Of a stretch of DNA of 64,000 nt, positions 21,695-30,925 are shown in pieces. Source of the DNA: Humibacillus sp. GTDB lineage: Bacteria; Actinomycetota; Actinomycetes; Actinomycetales; Dermatophilaceae. Every line of letters starts with the position of its first letter. Positions within the stretch are counted from its first letter, which is position 1. The stretch lies in assembly GCA_030452985.1 (NCBI GenBank), contig JAKDLG010000004.1:1-64000 (forward strand). The letters run 5' to 3'. The translations under genes and the position numbers were made by a program. The notes under the pieces were generated by a model. That model did no database searches. It was not told the DNA's origin and worked only from the letters and a program-made list of their open reading frames with translations.

Positions 21695-22276
21695 GTGCTG
21701 CATCGCGTCGAACCCCCGTCATCGGAGACGGCGTCGCCACAGCGGGGAGACCAGGTGTTCGGTCGGTTCACCAAGTGGGGCGGGGGCGCGCACTGGCAGT
21801 GGCAGGGCCGCTACCTCGACGAGGACGAGTTCGGACGGTGGTTCGAGGCGCCCGCCGGCACCCGATGCTCGCGGCCCGGAGTCAGCTTTCTCGAGGCGGA
21901 CCCGTGGGTCTCCCTCGTGCCGCGCGACGCCGGGTGGGTGGCCGGCTTCTACCCCGCCACCAAGGACATCAGCCTGTATGTCGACATGACGACATACGCC
22001 AGTTGGCTACCCCTGGCGCCGGGGCGAGACGGACCCCGCTGGGAGGTGACCATGGTCGACCTCGATCTCGACGTCATCCTCACCCGCGAGGGTCACCTCT
22101 TCGTCGACGACGAGGACGAGTTCGCGGCGCACCGGGCTCTGCTGGCGTACCCGTCCGACGTCGTCACGCTCGCCGAACGAACATCGCGGGAGGTGGTCGA
22201 GGCTGTCTCAGCGGGGCGCGAGCCCTTCGCAACCGTCGGTTTCGAGAGACTGCGGCAGGTAACCTGCGCAGAATGA
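21695..22276 (+). CDS. DUF402 domain protein
   Basis: 193-residue protein with the DUF402 (FomD/YgaC-like) barrel: VSLVPRDAGWVAGFYPATKDISLYVDMTTYA and the acidic MVDLDLDVILTREGHLFVDDEDEF. Members are small phosphohydrolases or nucleotide-binding proteins, and the conserved Asp-rich strand fits metal binding. The GTG start gives the family length. Its stop overlaps the kinase start (ATGA), suggesting co-translation. Confidence 0.8.
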   Translation: MLHRVEPPSSETASPQRGDQVFGRFTKWGGGAHWQWQGRYLDEDEFGRWFEAPAGTRCSRPGVSFLEADPWVSLVPRDAGWVAGFYPATKDISLYVDMTTYASWLPLAPGRDGPRWEVTMVDLDLDVILTREGHLFVDDEDEFAAHRALLAYPSDVVTLAERTSREVVEAVSAGREPFATVGFERLRQVTCAE

Positions 22277-23754
22277 GCGCTGTCGGGAGGGCCGGTTCGG
22301 ATGACCTCTCGGGCGGCCTCGGTGGACTCGGTGGACTCGGTGGCGGCAGTGACGTCGTCGCCGGTCGCTACGCGCTCGTCGACCCGATCGCCTCGGGTGG
22401 CACCGGCACCGTGTGGCGCGCCTACGACCACGAGCGCGACCAGTGGTGCGCGGCGAAGGTGATGCGCCAGCGGCACGCGGGCGAGCTGCTGCGGTTCGCC
22501 CGCGAACAGTCGGTGCGCTTGCAGCACCCGCACATCGCGAGCCCCTACGCGTGGGCGGCCGACGACGGCACCGTGCTCATCGCGAGCGAGCTGGTCGACG
22601 GCGGCTCGCTGCACACGCTGATCGGCGACTACGGCCCGCTCGACGAACCGACCGTCGTGGTGCTGCTCGAGCAGGTCCTCTCGGCGCTCGCCGCCATGCA
22701 CGAGGCGAGGCTCGTGCACCGGGACGTCAAGCCGGGCAACGTCCTGCTCCGCGCCACCGGCGACGGCCCGTTGCACTGCATGCTCACCGACTTCGGGCTG
22801 ACGATCGGCGCCGACGACCCGCGCCTGACCCAGACCGGCATGGTCATCGGCACCCCCGGCTACCTCCCGCCCGAGGTGATGCTCGGCACCGCCCGACCGC
22901 ACCCCAGCCACGACGTGTACGCCGCCGGTCGGCTGGCCCTGACGATGGCCCTCGGCCTCGAGCCTCGAACGGCGGGCTGGCCGGCGCCCGGCCACGAACC
23001 GCTCGGCCCAAACAGCCAACTCGACGAGGAACGGCTCGCACGTGTGGTGGACCCCCAGCTGCAGGCCGCGCTGCGGCTCATGACCGAGGCCGAACCGGCC
23101 CGGCGACCCACCGACGCCCAGGCAGCGATCCTGCTGCTGGCCGGCATCCCGCGCTGCGCATCGTCGCGAACAGCCGACGGCGACCCGGTGACCGTGTTCA
23201 ACCAGCTACCCGCCACCACGACCACGCCAGGCCTGGTTGACCGTTCTGACGACGCCTCTGGCGTGGGCTCTGATGACGGGGCTGTCGACGCTGCTGCCGG
23301 CGTGGCTGTCGAAACCAGACAGGAGACGGATGCCAACGAGGAGGCCGACGGCGGCACGACGGTGCTACGGGTGCGGCCGACCGCGGCCCAGCGGGAGGGT
23401 GACCACGACCGGCCCGCCCCACCGACGGCGCCGTCGTCGCCTCCGGTAGAACCTCTTGAGTCGGCGGCTGCCGCGGAGGCGCCGAGACGCCCAGCTCGTC
23501 GACCCCGGCGGAGGTCGGTCGGCGCGGTGCTGGCGGTCGTGGTCGCGGCAGCCGGCACCGCGGTTGCGGCCGCCACCGGTTGGGGGCCGTTCGACGACTC
23601 ACCAGCCCCGTCGGTCGTCCCCACGGCCCCGATCGTGCACCCAGCCGCGATGGGCGAGGCGTGCGGGTGGCAGCAGCAGGGTGACGTGGTCAACGCTGCC
23701 CAGGGCCCGCTGACGTGTCGCCTCGTCGACGGGGCCTACGTCTGGGGTCCCTGA
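22273..23754 (+). CDS. Membrane-anchored Ser/Thr protein kinase
   Basis: 493-residue Hanks-type kinase. A Gly/Leu-rich start precedes the P-loop (VDPIASGGTGTVWRAYDH), catalytic Lys (CAAKVMRQ), HRD loop (LVHRDVKPGNVLL), DFG (LTDFGLTIG) and the APE-region equivalent (GYLPPEVMLG). After a Thr/Pro/Ala-rich linker there is a single membrane helix (SVGAVLAVVVAAAGTAVAAATGW) and a short extracellular tail with two Cys. Unlike PknB it has no PASTA repeats. It overlaps the DUF402 gene, which might be functionally linked. Confidence 0.9.
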   Translation: MSAVGRAGSDDLSGGLGGLGGLGGGSDVVAGRYALVDPIASGGTGTVWRAYDHERDQWCAAKVMRQRHAGELLRFAREQSVRLQHPHIASPYAWAADDGTVLIASELVDGGSLHTLIGDYGPLDEPTVVVLLEQVLSALAAMHEARLVHRDVKPGNVLLRATGDGPLHCMLTDFGLTIGADDPRLTQTGMVIGTPGYLPPEVMLGTARPHPSHDVYAAGRLALTMALGLEPRTAGWPAPGHEPLGPNSQLDEERLARVVDPQLQAALRLMTEAEPARRPTDAQAAILLLAGIPRCASSRTADGDPVTVFNQLPATTTTPGLVDRSDDASGVGSDDGAVDAAAGVAVETRQETDANEEADGGTTVLRVRPTAAQREGDHDRPAPPTAPSSPPVEPLESAAAAEAPRRPARRPRRRSVGAVLAVVVAAAGTAVAAATGWGPFDDSPAPSVVPTAPIVHPAAMGEACGWQQQGDVVNAAQGPLTCRLVDGAYVWGP

Positions 23755-23948: not shown

Positions 23949-26000
23949 CTACGCCTGGGTGCCGTCGGGTGGAGTGCGGCGGGCTCGGGTCACGAGCACG
24001 GTGGCGCCGGCTCCGACGAGCGCGGCCAGCGCGGCGATGAGCACGAAGACGAGCACGCCGGGGCCGCCTGAGTCGGCCGACGACTGCTCGGCAGCGACCG
24101 TGGCGGCATCGCCGGGCGGTGGCGGTGTGGCAGCCGTGGTGGGTGCGACCGTCGCGTCGGTTGAGTCGGGACGCGTGGTAGGGCCAGTGGCATCGGTGGC
24201 CGGCTGATAGACCGGCCCCGCCTCCGGAGTGCCGACCACGACGGCGGTGATGAGGTAGCGGGTGCGCGACGGCGTCTTCTGCTTGAAGCGCGCCCCCAGC
24301 TCGATGTAATACGCACCGTCGAGCTGGAAGTGTTTGAGATCGAGGCTGGAGCTCGTGCGATTGGTCCAGCGCACCGGGTGCTTCGTGGTGGCTGAGAAGG
24401 CTCTTTTGTCAATGTCTTTGGTGAACCAGAACCGCCCGTTGGTGTCGCCCGTTCTGGCCGCCGGTTGGCGCAGCGGGTTATACAGGTTGGTTTCGATGAT
24501 GGCGGGTCTGTCGAGCGTGGGAGTGGCGGGGCCGACCTCCTTGATGACGTAGGCGAAGCGTTGGCCCCACAACAGGTCGACCTTGAAGAAGCGGTGCTCT
24601 CCCGTGGTGATCTCGTCGGTGTAGGTCACTCCGCTGGTGAGTCGGGGCGCATCGTTGAACCCGGTGCCGCCCTCGATAGACCGGGGGGGCCCGAAGCGCG
24701 GCTGGGCCACGGGCGGTAGCGCCTCGGTTTGCGCGGACGGCACGTTCGACGTGTCGGCCGGGGGCTCGAGGCGCACGACGAGCTCGAGCGGGAGGGCGTC
24801 CTGGAGGAACGCGTCCCCGACCCGGCTTACCTCGAGCACGGCCCGCCCGTCGACCGGACACCTTTTCGAGGCGTTCTTCGGGCCCAGCGAGCGCACGAGC
24901 ACCGCGCTGGGGACCCCTGACTTCTCCCCGTTGAAGATCTCCGTCTTGGACGCTCGCTCACAGGTCTCACCGGACGGCCCTCGCAGGATCAGCGACACCC
25001 CGAGAAATCGCGAGTCGAAGTAGTCGACCCCGCCCGGCCGGGCCGGAGGCACGAGGGTGCCAGCGACGTACAACGTGGCGTCCGGTTGGAGGTCGACGGT
25101 GTAGAACTTCGTGGTCCCCGTTCCGAGCCCCGGGCCACTGCTGTCCGCGCCCTTGGCCAAAGTGTCGAGGTACTGGCCGGGTTGCAACAGGGGGGCCTGC
25201 GTGGAGGCCTGGTCGGCGCCGGTGATCTTGGTGCCTCTGGCGGCGTAACCGGTGACGGCGTAGTCGACCTTGACCTTGAGGGCGCTGGTGAGCTGGTCGG
25301 CGTCGGTGGCGTCGCTGTAGGTGCCGCCCGTCGCGGTGGCGACGCAGGAGAGCTGGGCGCGGGCTTTGGCGTCGACCTTGAACCCGACGGTGTGCACGGT
25401 GAGGTCGACGCCTTGCTTCTTCAGTTCTTTGGCGACGTCGCAGGGGGCGGGGGGTGCGCAGGTGTCTTCGCCGTCGGAGACGAGCACGATCGAGCGGGGC
25501 CCTTCTTGGGGTAGGGCCTTGGCGGCGGCGCGTAGGGCGTTGCCGATGGGGGTGTAGCCGGAGGCCTTGACGCTGTTGACGGCGGCGGACATGGATGCCG
25601 GGTCGAGTGGTCCGACGGGTACGAGGGTGCGGATGTCTTGGCAGCCCTTGGCTTTGTCGGAGGCGCCCGAGCCGGTGGTGGCGCCGTAGACGGTGAGCCC
25701 GACCTTCGTGTCAGCCGGCAGCGCGGTCACCAGGGAGGTGACGGCCTTCTTGGCGGCGTCGATGCGGGGGCCGGGGGCGTCGGTCTCGTTCATCGAGCCG
25801 GACGCATCGAGTACGACCATGACCGGCACGCTCGCTGACGTCGGTGAGACAGCGGGCGAGAGCGCGGCCGCTGCGGAGGCTGGCGATGCCGTGACGACGC
25901 CGATCCCGGCCAGGGCCACGGCGACCAAAGCAGCGGCATACCGCAACCGGCCTGACCGCCCTCGAGACGACGACGCTGAGCTGGCGAGGTCTGGTGCCAC
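23949..26000 (-). CDS. Secreted, membrane-anchored von Willebrand factor A domain protein
   Basis: 683-residue protein with a signal peptide (RLRYAAALVAVALAGIGVVTASPASA), then a VWA domain carrying the MIDAS motif DASGSMNE and a conserved DGEDTCAPPAPCD segment. A large beta-rich region of ~350 residues and a C-terminal helix (VLVFVLIAALAALVGAGATVLV) with a basic tail follow. It probably binds a ligand or partner protein outside the membrane in a metal-dependent way. I chose GTG 26000, which has AGGGGG six bases upstream, over ATG 26054. It is divergent from an HTH regulator across a gap with two palindromes. Confidence 0.85.
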   Translation of the reverse strand: MAPDLASSASSSRGRSGRLRYAAALVAVALAGIGVVTASPASAAAALSPAVSPTSASVPVMVVLDASGSMNETDAPGPRIDAAKKAVTSLVTALPADTKVGLTVYGATTGSGASDKAKGCQDIRTLVPVGPLDPASMSAAVNSVKASGYTPIGNALRAAAKALPQEGPRSIVLVSDGEDTCAPPAPCDVAKELKKQGVDLTVHTVGFKVDAKARAQLSCVATATGGTYSDATDADQLTSALKVKVDYAVTGYAARGTKITGADQASTQAPLLQPGQYLDTLAKGADSSGPGLGTGTTKFYTVDLQPDATLYVAGTLVPPARPGGVDYFDSRFLGVSLILRGPSGETCERASKTEIFNGEKSGVPSAVLVRSLGPKNASKRCPVDGRAVLEVSRVGDAFLQDALPLELVVRLEPPADTSNVPSAQTEALPPVAQPRFGPPRSIEGGTGFNDAPRLTSGVTYTDEITTGEHRFFKVDLLWGQRFAYVIKEVGPATPTLDRPAIIETNLYNPLRQPAARTGDTNGRFWFTKDIDKRAFSATTKHPVRWTNRTSSSLDLKHFQLDGAYYIELGARFKQKTPSRTRYLITAVVVGTPEAGPVYQPATDATGPTTRPDSTDATVAPTTAATPPPPGDAATVAAEQSSADSGGPGVLVFVLIAALAALVGAGATVLVTRARRTPPDGTQA

Positions 26001-26018: not shown

Positions 26019-26030
26019 TTGCAGGTGCAA
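26019..26030. promoter_or_regulatory. TTGCA-N2-TGCAA palindrome (site 1)
   Basis: TTGCAGGTGCAA is a perfect dyad with a two-base centre, 19 bases upstream of the VWA start. A second copy is centred 28 bases away. It is probably an operator for the divergent HTH protein. Confidence 0.6.
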
Positions 26031-26038
26031 TGATCGAA

Positions 26039-26058
26039 GCAAACATTTGCACATGCAA
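26039..26058. promoter_or_regulatory. TTGCA-N2-TGCAA palindrome (site 2) with overlapping dyad
   Basis: TTGCACATGCAA at 26047-26058 has the same arms as site 1. It overlaps another dyad, GCAAACATTTGC at 26039-26050. Two equal palindromes in one short divergent gap strongly suggest a cooperative regulator site. Confidence 0.6.
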
Positions 26059-28704: not shown

Positions 28705-28734
28705 TTGGGATCAGACCTGTTCTTTGGCTAGAGT
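28705..28734 (+). promoter_or_regulatory. Promoter of tRNA-Ala
   Basis: TTGGGA (28705-28710), an 18-base spacer and TAGAGT (28729-28734) form a plausible housekeeping promoter. The expected start is about 40 bases before the tRNA. It overlaps the 3' end of the recombinase frame on the other strand. Confidence 0.55.
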
Positions 28735-30512
28735 GACGCAGTCGCCTCAGCGAGCATGATCTTGAGGTGGCACCCGTACGGGGCTGTGGCGCAGCTGGTA
28801 GCGCACCTGCATGGCATGCAGGGGGTCAGGGGTTCGAGTCCCCTCAGCTCCACCAGAAGGTCGTTGTTCAAACCAACGACATCACCGGTTTGAGTTCCAG
28901 ATTCCGCCGTCCGTCCCTGTTGGCGGACGGCGAGGGTCTGGACGTCGCGGTCGAGGAACACGTTGAACGGGACGCCGGGTTCGCCGTGGATGGCGTCGTC
29001 ATCAGTGACGATGAGCTTGTCGAAGAAGGCTTGGTTGGCGATCCTGCGGAGCGAATCGTCGATGCTCATGTAGATGGCGTGCATGTCCCCGGCGAGGGCG
29101 AGGCAGTCGTCCAGGTGGGCTTTGGCTTGGTCGTACTCGATGTCGCCGGCGTTGATCTGCGCGTCGAGGAACGCGAGCCGCCGCGCGATGCGGTCCTGCT
29201 CGGTGCCGAGCAGGTCGAGGGGCACGGCTCCGGCGTAATGAGCCTGCATGAGCTTGGTGCGCTCGTCACGGAGCGCGTCGCGTTCTGCCTTGTACCCCTG
29301 GGCCTCGTGCTTGGCGACCTGGTGCAGTCGGTCGAACTCACTGGTGACCAGCTCGCGCAGCGCGGTGACGACGTGTTCGGGTATCTGGACGTGGCGGTAG
29401 TAGTCCTCGACGGCGGCTTCGATGTCGGGCACGAACATGGACTTGCGTTCGCAGTTGGTGCGGCGGGCGTGCCGGCCGGTGCACATGAAGTACGGGTAGA
29501 TGACGCCGCGGCGGCTCTTGGCGTTGGTCAGCGTCAGCCGGGACCCGCACTGCCCGCAGTACAGGCTGCCTTTCAGGTAGTGGTCATGGGACTGGGTCTT
29601 CTCCCCGGAGGTCTGGTGCGCGGTGAGCACCGCCTGGACGCGGTACCAGACCTCGGGCGCGACCAGCGGTTCGTGCAGGCCGTCGTAGCTGGCACCGCGG
29701 AAGCGGACGCTGCCCTTGTAGTAGGGGTTGGTGAGCATCTTGTGGATCGTGGACAGCACCGGCGGCTTGGAGGGCCGCTTCGGGGTCGGCACGGTGGTCA
29801 GGCCCCGGTCGATGAGTTCCTCGCGCAGGCTGATCGTGGAGTAGTTCCCGGTGGCGTAGGCCTCGAAGGCCCACGTGATCAGTGGTGCCCGGTCGGGGTC
29901 GACTTCGACGGTGCGGACCTCGCGGCCGAGTTCGTCACGCTTGGTGACGTTGAGGTAGCCCATCGGGGCCTTGCCGTTGGTCCCGCCACCCTGGGCTTTC
30001 TGGTTCATGCCCTTGGAGACCTCGCCGGCGAGGTTCCGGGAGTAGAACTCCGCGATGGTGGACATGATGCCGTGCAGCAGCATCCCGGACGGGGTCTCGT
30101 CGATGTTCTCGGTCGCGGAGACGAGCATGACCCCGGCCTCTTTGAGGGCGAGGTGGATGGTCACGTCGTCGGCGCGGTTGCGGGCGAGCCGGTCGACCTT
30201 GTGAACAATGCAGTAGGCGACCTGGTGGGTCTTGACGTACTCGATCATCCGCATCAGCTCGGGCCGGTCGGCCTTGCGGGCGGACTCGCCGGCGTCGACG
30301 AACTCCTCGGTGATGATCGCGTTCAGCTCGCGGGCCTTGCGCAGGTTCGCCTCGCGCTGAGCGGGGATCGAGAAGCCCTCGTCCCGTCCGCCCTTGGAGG
30401 CCTGCTCTTTGGTTGACACGCGCAGGTAGGAGACGGCGAGTGTGGTGGTCTCGCCGATGCGATCGAGCGCGGTGGCGGCGGGTGGCTGCTGTGCAGTGGT
30501 CGTGGCGGTCAT
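28728..30512 (-). CDS. Large serine recombinase (integrase) of the element
   Basis: 594-residue site-specific recombinase. It has the resolvase domain with catalytic Ser33 (SYLRVSTKEQ), conserved Arg residues (HKVDRLARNRADD), a recombinase domain (about 190-290), a zinc ribbon (CGQCGSRLTLTNAKSRRG through CERKSMF) and a coiled coil near 400-450. ATG 30512 has GGAAGGGAA upstream. The final ~40 residues (LRGLEPLTPCMPCRCATSCATAP onward) are the antisense of tRNA-Ala plus chromosome, so the native C-terminus is changed by integration. Confidence 0.93.
   Translation of the reverse strand: MTATTTAQQPPAATALDRIGETTTLAVSYLRVSTKEQASKGGRDEGFSIPAQREANLRKARELNAIITEEFVDAGESARKADRPELMRMIEYVKTHQVAYCIVHKVDRLARNRADDVTIHLALKEAGVMLVSATENIDETPSGMLLHGIMSTIAEFYSRNLAGEVSKGMNQKAQGGGTNGKAPMGYLNVTKRDELGREVRTVEVDPDRAPLITWAFEAYATGNYSTISLREELIDRGLTTVPTPKRPSKPPVLSTIHKMLTNPYYKGSVRFRGASYDGLHEPLVAPEVWYRVQAVLTAHQTSGEKTQSHDHYLKGSLYCGQCGSRLTLTNAKSRRGVIYPYFMCTGRHARRTNCERKSMFVPDIEAAVEDYYRHVQIPEHVVTALRELVTSEFDRLHQVAKHEAQGYKAERDALRDERTKLMQAHYAGAVPLDLLGTEQDRIARRLAFLDAQINAGDIEYDQAKAHLDDCLALAGDMHAIYMSIDDSLRRIANQAFFDKLIVTDDDAIHGEPGVPFNVFLDRDVQTLAVRQQGRTAESGTQTGDVVGLNNDLLVELRGLEPLTPCMPCRCATSCATAPYGCHLKIMLAEATASL
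28780..28855 (+). tRNA. tRNA-Ala (GGC)
   Basis: The cloverleaf folds by eye. Acceptor stem GGGGCTG pairs with CAGCTCC (one G-U), the D arm is GCGC-AGCTGGTA-GCGC, the anticodon stem CCTGC/GCAGG encloses loop ATGGCAT with anticodon GGC, and the T arm is AGGGG-TTCGAGT-CCCCT. The CCA end is encoded. Its 3' end marks the left border of the integrated element. Confidence 0.95.
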
Positions 30513-30601
30513 GGGTCGTGTTCCCTTCCCCGGTGGTCGGGGCCAGCACGAGCGGCGGCTACCGCTGGTGCGGTGCGACTCGTAATGGGGAAACACGACC
30601 C
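30513..30601 (-). promoter_or_regulatory. Long-range stem covering the recombinase ribosome binding site
   Basis: GGGTCGTGTTCCC at 30513-30525 is complementary to GGGGAAACACGACCC at 30587-30601. In the minus-strand mRNA the upstream arm would pair with the bases directly before the ATG, including the GGGAA ribosome binding site. This could hold recombinase translation low, or the arms could be a protein-binding inverted repeat. Confidence 0.55.
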
Positions 30602-30627
30602 GGCAGCTCCGAAGGAGCCGGCCGGGT
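30600..30627 (-). terminator. UUCG-type hairpin between the 82-residue ORF and the recombinase
   Basis: On the minus strand CCCGGC...GCTCC-TTC-GGAGC...GCCGGG makes a two-part hairpin with a TTCG-like loop. It lies 50 bases after the upstream gene and could end that transcript or be part of the recombinase leader. There is no T-run. Confidence 0.4.
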
Positions 30628-30676
30628 AAGCCACGAAGGCCAAACAGGACTGCGCACCACGACCAAGCCCGAAAGC

Positions 30677-30925
30677 TCAGCCGTTGGCTTCTTGCGCTTC
30701 TGATTCTACCTCGCCGTCCCGACATTGCTCTGAGGCCGGCAGGACGGTGTCGGCGTCCGTCGCGGGCGTGGTGCGGTCCTGCTCGGCGCGGGAGCGGGCC
30801 ATGCCGATGAACAGTTGGACGAGCTTGTGCAGGTCTGGGCTCTGCCGCGGCTCGGCCTCGATCCGGTAATCCCGCATCCTCTCCGGCAGCCGCTCATCCC
30901 TGTCGCGGGAAGCCCGGCCGGTCAC
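30677..30925 (-). CDS. Small conserved-looking protein of the element
   Basis: 82-residue hydrophilic protein with a charged helical middle (SPDLHKLVQLFIGMARSRAEQD) and acidic tail. Its GTG start overlaps the stop of the DUF4913 gene (GTGA), indicating coupled translation, and codon use matches the other element genes. I do not recognise a family. Position just before the integrase suggests a role in element maintenance, but this is not supported by sequence. Confidence 0.65.
   Translation of the reverse strand: MTGRASRDRDERLPERMRDYRIEAEPRQSPDLHKLVQLFIGMARSRAEQDRTTPATDADTVLPASEQCRDGEVESEAQEANG

What the first reader, a model, noticed from the sequence alone, without database searches (positions are those of the whole stretch)
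26019..26058. Twin TTGCA-N2-TGCAA palindromes between a VWA protein and its HTH regulator
Two perfect palindromes with identical arms, plus an overlapping GCAAA-CA-TTTGC dyad, lie in the divergent gap. A secreted VWA protein with its own repressor is not a system I recognise.
Basis: partly seen in the sequence, partly recalled or inferred. Interest (0 to 1): 0.5.

Follow-up and report, generated by a model that had tools for sequence, protein, structure and literature searches.

The report
Operators of a kinase-linked surface-protein switch
Two matching DNA palindromes are very probably the landing sites of a small gene switch that, in many actinobacteria, travels with genes for a membrane kinase and a secreted surface protein, forming what looks like an undescribed signalling module.

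Summary
In detail: TTGCA-N2-TGCAA lies at 26019-26030 and 26047-26058 and nowhere else in the 5.5-Mb assembly.

The palindromes are copies of a wider operator, TTTGC-N4-GCAAA. Sites with at least 9 of 10 matches lie upstream of the HTH or VWA gene in 51 of 64 VWA-bearing actinomycete loci, 160 times denser than elsewhere; six control palindromes reach at most 2 loci. Where the two genes are apart, the sites mostly stay with the VWA gene, some within its promoter. One HTH clade with Gln-to-His in the recognition helix (5 of 5, one event) has a changed operator. EspR of M. tuberculosis shares that helix, and its published half-site is TTTGC.

Best reading: a kinase-linked HTH repressor controlling a secreted VWA/beta-sandwich protein. 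Operator and gene linkage are well supported by comparison; repression and kinase input are inferred. Nothing was tested at the bench.

The parts
   Evidence: arms identical in L030 and L031
   Evidence: arms identical in L030 and L031
26001..26106 (.). divergent gap between the VWA and HTH genes
   Evidence: start codons read; alignment with L030 and L031
26107..26613 (+). HTH protein, 168 aa (P0001), lambda-repressor-like DNA-binding domain, helix SAPMLSQL
   Evidence: Pfam HTH_31 16.6 bits, below its cut-off of 27
23949..26000 (-). secreted, probably membrane-anchored VWA protein, 683 aa (P0002), with beta-strand domains after the VWA domain
   Evidence: Pfam VWA_2 53.7 bits; model; Foldseek
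22273..23754 (+). Ser/Thr kinase, 493 aa, kinase domain plus a C-terminal hydrophobic segment
   Evidence: Pfam Pkinase 112.1 bits; sequence; linkage

Best explanation
The palindromes are a pair of operators for the neighbouring HTH protein. A dimer reads TTTGC half-sites with its SAPMLSQL helix and binds palindromes of the TTTGC-N4-GCAAA kind, probably two side by side, to repress the VWA gene and, where the gap is shared, probably its own gene. The Ser/Thr kinase encoded in the locus supplies the input, most likely by phosphorylating the HTH protein and changing its hold on DNA. The product is a secreted, membrane-anchored VWA plus beta-sandwich protein. Supported by comparative sequence evidence: the operator, its tie to this HTH family, its attachment to the VWA gene, and the HTH-kinase-VWA linkage. 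Inferred: repression, cooperativity, phosphorylation, and what the VWA protein does.
For: Only two places in the genome. Arms and spacing conserved in L030 and L031. At 9 of 10 matches, 51 of 64 VWA-bearing loci have a site in the HTH- or VWA-upstream region: 86 sites in 41,591 bp against 12 in 932,504 bp outside; control palindromes 0-2 loci. In 29 loci where VWA is not next to HTH, 22 have such a site by VWA and 3 by HTH (my count). In 11 loci two sites start 5-7 and 27-28 bases from the first base of a TTG[AC][CT]N-N16-18-TANNNT match. Gln-to-His helix goes with TTTCCG[AT]TCGTCAA in 5 of 5. EspR: same helix, TTTGC consensus. Kinase hit in 61 of 64.
Against: 13 of 64 loci have no site at 9 or more: 4 are the His clade, 4 reach 8, and L042, L048, L053, L055 and L127 have none even at 8. 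The His change is a single clade, so one event. The window has no sigma-70-like promoter match, and its 28-bp spacing is not the commonest one (21-22). At 9 of 10 the own genome has 17 sites against 18 for the control. The HTH protein has no Pfam or NCBIfam match above cut-off. No evidence that the kinase acts on it; the linker Thr/Ser are loosely conserved and occur in HTHs without a linked kinase.
Confidence: 0.68

Rival explanations
1. The HTH protein binds the palindromes but activates, or acts in both directions, for instance by bridging sites as described for EspR, instead of repressing the VWA gene.
For: The window gap shows no sigma-70-like promoter, as might suit an activated promoter. 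EspR controls espACD positively and lowers its own expression (PMC3315491, abstract start, passages).
Against: In 11 loci the sites sit in the spacer and over the end of the -10 of a promoter-like match, a place where bound protein usually blocks polymerase (general knowledge).
Confidence: 0.17
2. Another regulator binds the palindromes; the HTH gene is only a neighbour.
For: In some loci the sites are several kilobases from the HTH gene, and no binding was measured.
Against: Linkage of HTH with kinase and VWA in several gene orders; helix and operator change together; EspR shares helix and half-site; 21 of 27 loci with HTH but neither partner found lack sites at 8 or more.
Confidence: 0.1
3. 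The HTH-operator-VWA circuit is real, but the kinase is an unrelated or independent neighbour.
For: No substrate evidence. In 3 loci a VWA gene lies beside HTH with no kinase hit (L048, L057, L092), two of them on stretches that end close by. Kinase genes are common in actinomycetes (general knowledge).
Against: Kinase in 61 of 64 VWA-bearing loci. HTH and kinase are close and in tandem in 36 of 107 loci (26+5+4+1).
Confidence: 0.3
4. Chance dyads in an AT-richer gap, without function.
For: Single sites at 9 of 10 are at background in the own genome (17 against 18). One perfect site at C100:1873 lies before a gene that looks like aconitase.
Against: The enrichment and controls; conservation of arms with varying centres.
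Confidence: 0.02

Closest known systems
EspR (M. tuberculosis regulator and nucleoid-associated protein)
   Same: Recognition helix SAPYLSQLRSG against SAPMLSQL; consensus TTTGC[TC][GA]; [quoted passage not shown] HTH plus C-terminal dimerisation domain (PMC3315491, passages).
   Different: EspR binds hundreds of sites and shapes the nucleoid; here the strict palindrome occurs at one locus only. Overall similarity is weak (E 0.26). No linked kinase or VWA gene is mentioned in the passages I saw.
PknL / Rv2175c kinase and DNA-binding substrate
   Same: A DNA-binding protein whose DNA binding is altered by its kinase: phosphomimetic Thr9 abolishes binding (PMC4601284, passages).
   Different: Rv2175c is a winged HTH; no VWA partner is described there; phosphorylation is not shown here.
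Kinase + PP2C + standalone vWA in GAP1-N2 neighbourhoods
   Same: Actinobacterial active kinase gene, in some cases with TM helices, beside a vWA gene (PMC7159879, passages).
   Different: There the vWA is standalone and linked with PP2C and GTPase genes; here it is secreted, has further domains, and is linked with an HTH.
ArnA-ArnB of Sulfolobus
   Same: A vWA protein in phosphorylation-dependent control of gene expression (PMC6509490, start of abstract in a search listing).
   Different: Archaeal FHA/vWA pair; here the VWA protein is probably the controlled product and outside the cell.

Membership tests
XRE / lambda-repressor-like HTH | lambda-repressor-like fold of the DNA-binding part | tested here: met
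   Model pLDDT 89.1; structural matches to this fold over residues of about 13-101, Z up to 6.6, which is middling for a helical protein
XRE / lambda-repressor-like HTH | Pfam HTH profile above its curated cut-off | tested here: not met
   HTH_31 16.6 bits against a cut-off of 27; HTH_3 14.4 against 23
EspR | recognition helix SAPxLSQL | tested here: met
   Alignment
EspR | TTTGC half-site | tested here: met
   Operators against the published consensus; binding itself not tested
EspR | overall sequence similarity | tested here: inconclusive
   Profile E-value 0.26-0.35 for EspR chains
EspR | many binding sites across the genome | tested here: inconclusive
   Palindromes at 9 of 10 are at background, 17 against 18; single half-sites were not counted
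Hanks-type Ser/Thr kinase | Pfam Pkinase above cut-off, with catalytic motifs | tested here: met
   112.1 bits against 31.7; AAKVM, HRDVKPGN and DFG read from the sequence
VWA domain proteins | VWA profile above cut-off, and DxSxS metal motif | tested here: met
   VWA_2 53.7 against 27 bits, VWA 43.9 against 23.8; DASGS in the sequence
PknL/Rv2175c-type kinase-substrate pair | kinase phosphorylates the HTH protein and alters its DNA binding | not testable with these tools
   Only gene linkage was seen
GAP1-N2-linked kinase/PP2C/vWA systems | standalone vWA protein | tested here: not met
   Further beta-strand regions and a C-terminal helix 650-673 follow the VWA domain
GAP1-N2-linked kinase/PP2C/vWA systems | linked PP2C phosphatase and GAP1-N2 GTPase genes | not tested
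   Neither was searched for

The most novel reading that the evidence does not exclude
A three-part signalling module of Actinomycetes: an extracellular VWA/beta-sandwich protein senses an envelope ligand, a membrane Ser/Thr kinase carries the signal in, and an EspR-like HTH protein with dedicated TTTGC-N4-GCAAA operators closes a feedback loop on the surface protein. It would be a Hanks-kinase counterpart of a two-component system with its own hard-wired operator.
Probability: 0.35. Interest if true: 0.75.

Novelty: new variant of a known kind. Interest (0 to 1): 0.58.

Why it matters
If true, many actinomycetes, Streptomyces included, hold a kinase-to-promoter circuit with a known target gene and DNA site, so that the signal of a Hanks-type kinase could be read with one reporter. 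The family also offers a natural case in which an EspR-like recognition helix and its half-site have changed together.

Tried and rejected
Chance: rejected. At 8 of 10 matches the control palindromes reach 1-8 of 64 loci against 56 for the operator; at 9 of 10, 0-2 against 51.

A wider regulon in the own genome: not supported. At 9 of 10 there are 17 sites against 18 for the reversed control. One perfect extra site (C100:1873) lies before a gene that looks like aconitase (name recalled) beside another dyad; not pursued.

Operator as a property of every HTH copy: rejected. Of 27 loci with neither kinase nor VWA found, 21 have no site at 8 or more. Looked at directly, L074 (Kocuria) and L066 (Pseudonocardiales) sit among genes that look like dacB/tilS and truB/ribF (names recalled, no profile search).

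VWA as the invariant part: rejected. In alignment A3, 4 of 23 rows (L116, L120, L131, L132) lack the VWA domain; Pfam finds none in the three of these that I scanned (L116, L120, L132). In Actinomadura L102 an OmpA-family gene lies between kinase and HTH; only this Actinomadura locus was looked at.

L038 and L110 seem to be the same contig (both 52,916 bases), so 64 and 107 hold one duplicate. In one search, loci with identical upstream stretches were merged, L001, L002, L003 and L138 (copies of the window) were left out, and loci in which the helix pattern was not found dropped out.

Literature: searches listed nothing that describes the module. They cover open-access PMC papers and those terms only. 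I saw listings, plus passages of PMC4601284, PMC7159879 and PMC3315491; no paper was read whole. EspR is not among the 50 rows, which excludes nothing.

Full report
THE OBSERVATION. TTGCAGGTGCAA (26019-26030) and TTGCACATGCAA (26047-26058) are there as described. They are the only exact matches in the window (shuffle mean 0.01) and the only two places in the 5.5-Mb assembly, where the backwards control has one place. With one mismatch allowed no further site appears in the window, and 8 of 100 shuffles hold two or more. The gap lies between a VWA gene on the minus strand (GTG 26000) and an HTH gene on the plus strand (GTG 26107).

CLOSE RELATIVES. In L030 (same genus, HTH 86% identical) and L031 (another genus of the family, 65%) both palindromes occur at the same 28-bp spacing (L004 and L005 are the same places). 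All 20 arm bases are identical in the three gaps, while the centres read GG, TG, GG and CA, TA, CA.

A THIRD GENE. In the family, 27 of 149 genomes had the HTH gene, own genome included. In larger stretches from the 26 others, a Ser/Thr kinase gene and a VWA-protein gene mostly lie with it, in several orders. In the window the kinase is at 22273-23754 (+), Pfam Pkinase 112.1 bits. Over 107 loci (window, 26 family loci, the 80 named loci), 64 have a VWA-protein hit, 77 a kinase hit and 61 both. Arrangements: kinase upstream on the HTH strand with divergent VWA, 27; HTH then kinase in tandem with VWA on the other strand downstream, 26; HTH then kinase with divergent VWA, 5; HTH then kinase without VWA, 4; kinase upstream without VWA (all Actinomadura), 12; divergent VWA without kinase, 3; three single arrangements, 1 each; neither found, 27. 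Named genera with all three include Streptomyces, Kribbella, Nesterenkonia, Glutamicibacter, Micrococcus, Citricoccus, Knoellia, Nakamurella and Tessaracoccus. Class-wide, 60 of 394 sampled genomes have an HTH match at E 1e-8; in the order sample, 13 of 297.

THE OPERATOR. The window palindromes are variants (9 of 10) of TTTGC-N4-GCAAA. I counted sites in stretches upstream of HTH (260 bp) and VWA (about 500 bp, some of it coding) in the 64 VWA-bearing loci. At 9 of 10 or better, 51 loci have a site: 86 sites in 41,591 bp against 12 in 932,504 bp outside, 160-fold. Six control palindromes of the same make-up reach 2 loci (one of them) or none. Without such a site are 13 loci: L040, L043, L045 and L054 (the His clade, below); L041, L051, L083 and L121 (8 of 10 only); L042, L048, L053, L055 and L127 (none at 8). 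L054 also has an 8-of-10 site. Related loci are not independent, but the gaps are too diverged to align beyond near relatives, by eye.

IT GOES WITH THE VWA GENE. In 29 loci VWA is not next to HTH. By my count from the list, 22 of these have a site of 9 or more by VWA and 3 (L090, L112, L116) by HTH; weaker sites (8) by HTH are common in Streptomyces-type loci. In 16 of 64 loci a TTG[AC][CT]N-N16-18-TANNNT match on the VWA strand is overlapped by sites. In 11 of them (L033, L036, L039, L044, L046, L051, L052, L119, L122, L123, L130) one site starts 5-7 and another 27-28 bases from its first base, that is, in the spacer and over the end of the second hexamer. The match has a background of 0.016 per kb and strand. 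This suggests repression. The window's own gap has no sigma-70-like match, and its spacing of 28 is less common than 21-22, so its promoter stays unknown.

WHO BINDS IT. The helix SAPMLSQL is nearly invariant in the family. Among 142 loci with distinct upstream stretches, 5 have His for Gln55. All 5 have TTTCCG[AT]TCGTCAA (12 of 12) and none a TTTGC-type site of 9 or more (one has 8). Of 137 with Gln, 51 have a TTTGC-type site of 9 or more (96 at 8 or more) in the HTH-upstream stretch alone; 4 have a TTTCCG-type site of 10 or more, and those 4, listed there, score 10. The 5 His proteins are one clade (100/100), so this counts as one event. Independently, EspR's helix reads SAPYLSQLRSG and its consensus from ChIP-Seq is TTTGC[TC][GA] (PMC3315491, passages). 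The overall match to EspR is weak (E 0.26), so EspR is an analogue here, not a family assignment.

THE PROTEINS. HTH model: pLDDT 89.1, HTH domain, a weakly predicted linker at about 103-126, three C-terminal helices; the fold is lambda-repressor-like. The linker holds Thr and Ser in many members, is loosely conserved, and is similar in HTHs without a linked kinase, so a phosphosite there is a guess. VWA protein model: pLDDT 75.5, VWA domain about 60-250, beta-strand regions about 275-412 and 439-589, helix 650-673. Foldseek's best match is BatB (3ibs, E 2e-11); tandem beta-sandwich entries such as ColG collagen-binding domains also appear (5iku, E 1.8e-8, low TM-scores). 'Secreted' and 'membrane-anchored' rest on hydrophobic segments seen in the sequence and the model; no signal-peptide program was run. 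The kinase is likewise called membrane-bound from a hydrophobic segment; family kinases such as L040 and L043 end near that segment, while others carry a short outer tail with two Cys.

WITHOUT THE PARTNERS. In the tree, 13 Kocuria rows and 7 rows of Pseudonocardiales type form clades without a linked kinase. Of 27 loci with neither partner found, 21 have no site at 8 or more; the six with sites are L064, L085, L097, L103, L104 and L124, of which L097, L103, L104 and L124 fall in clades that mostly hold the kinase. L050, a His-type locus, has the TTTCCG operator (as L024) although no kinase or VWA was found near it.

KNOWN OR NEW. The parts are known kinds. For the combination, the searches listed nothing that describes it; that covers open-access PMC papers and those terms only. 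Nearest precedents: PknL/Rv2175c (PMC4601284, passages) and kinase/PP2C/vWA neighbourhoods (PMC7159879, passages).

VERDICT. The operator reading and the HTH-kinase-VWA linkage are strong. Repression is likely. Kinase input through phosphorylation of the HTH protein, and an envelope-sensing role of the VWA protein, are hypotheses.

Noticed in passing
window 28728-30725 (-) and 28780-28855 (+): A frame that looks like a serine recombinase (name recalled) ends over a tRNA-Ala gene, as in an element integrated at a tRNA; not part of this finding.
   Followed up: no
L116 9697-10938, L120 10838-12103, L131 10554-11942, L132 10350-11738 (all -): Streptomyces-type homologues of the VWA protein that lack the VWA domain but keep the rest, with operator-like sites upstream.
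   Followed up: partly
L102 6696-7295 (-): In Actinomadura an OmpA-family secreted protein lies between kinase and HTH, where other genera have the VWA protein; HTH-upstream sites are kept.
   Followed up: partly
L074 and L066: HTH homologues of Kocuria and Pseudonocardiales without linked kinase, VWA or operator, among genes that look like dacB/tilS and truB/ribF (names recalled).
   Followed up: partly
L177 1501-1514 (own genome C100:1873-1886): A perfect TTTGC-N4-GCAAA site before a gene that looks like aconitase, next to another dyad.
   Followed up: partly
window 21695-22276 (+): A gene that looks like DUF402 (name recalled) overlaps the kinase start and also precedes the kinase in L030 and L031; possibly a further member in this lineage.
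   Followed up: no
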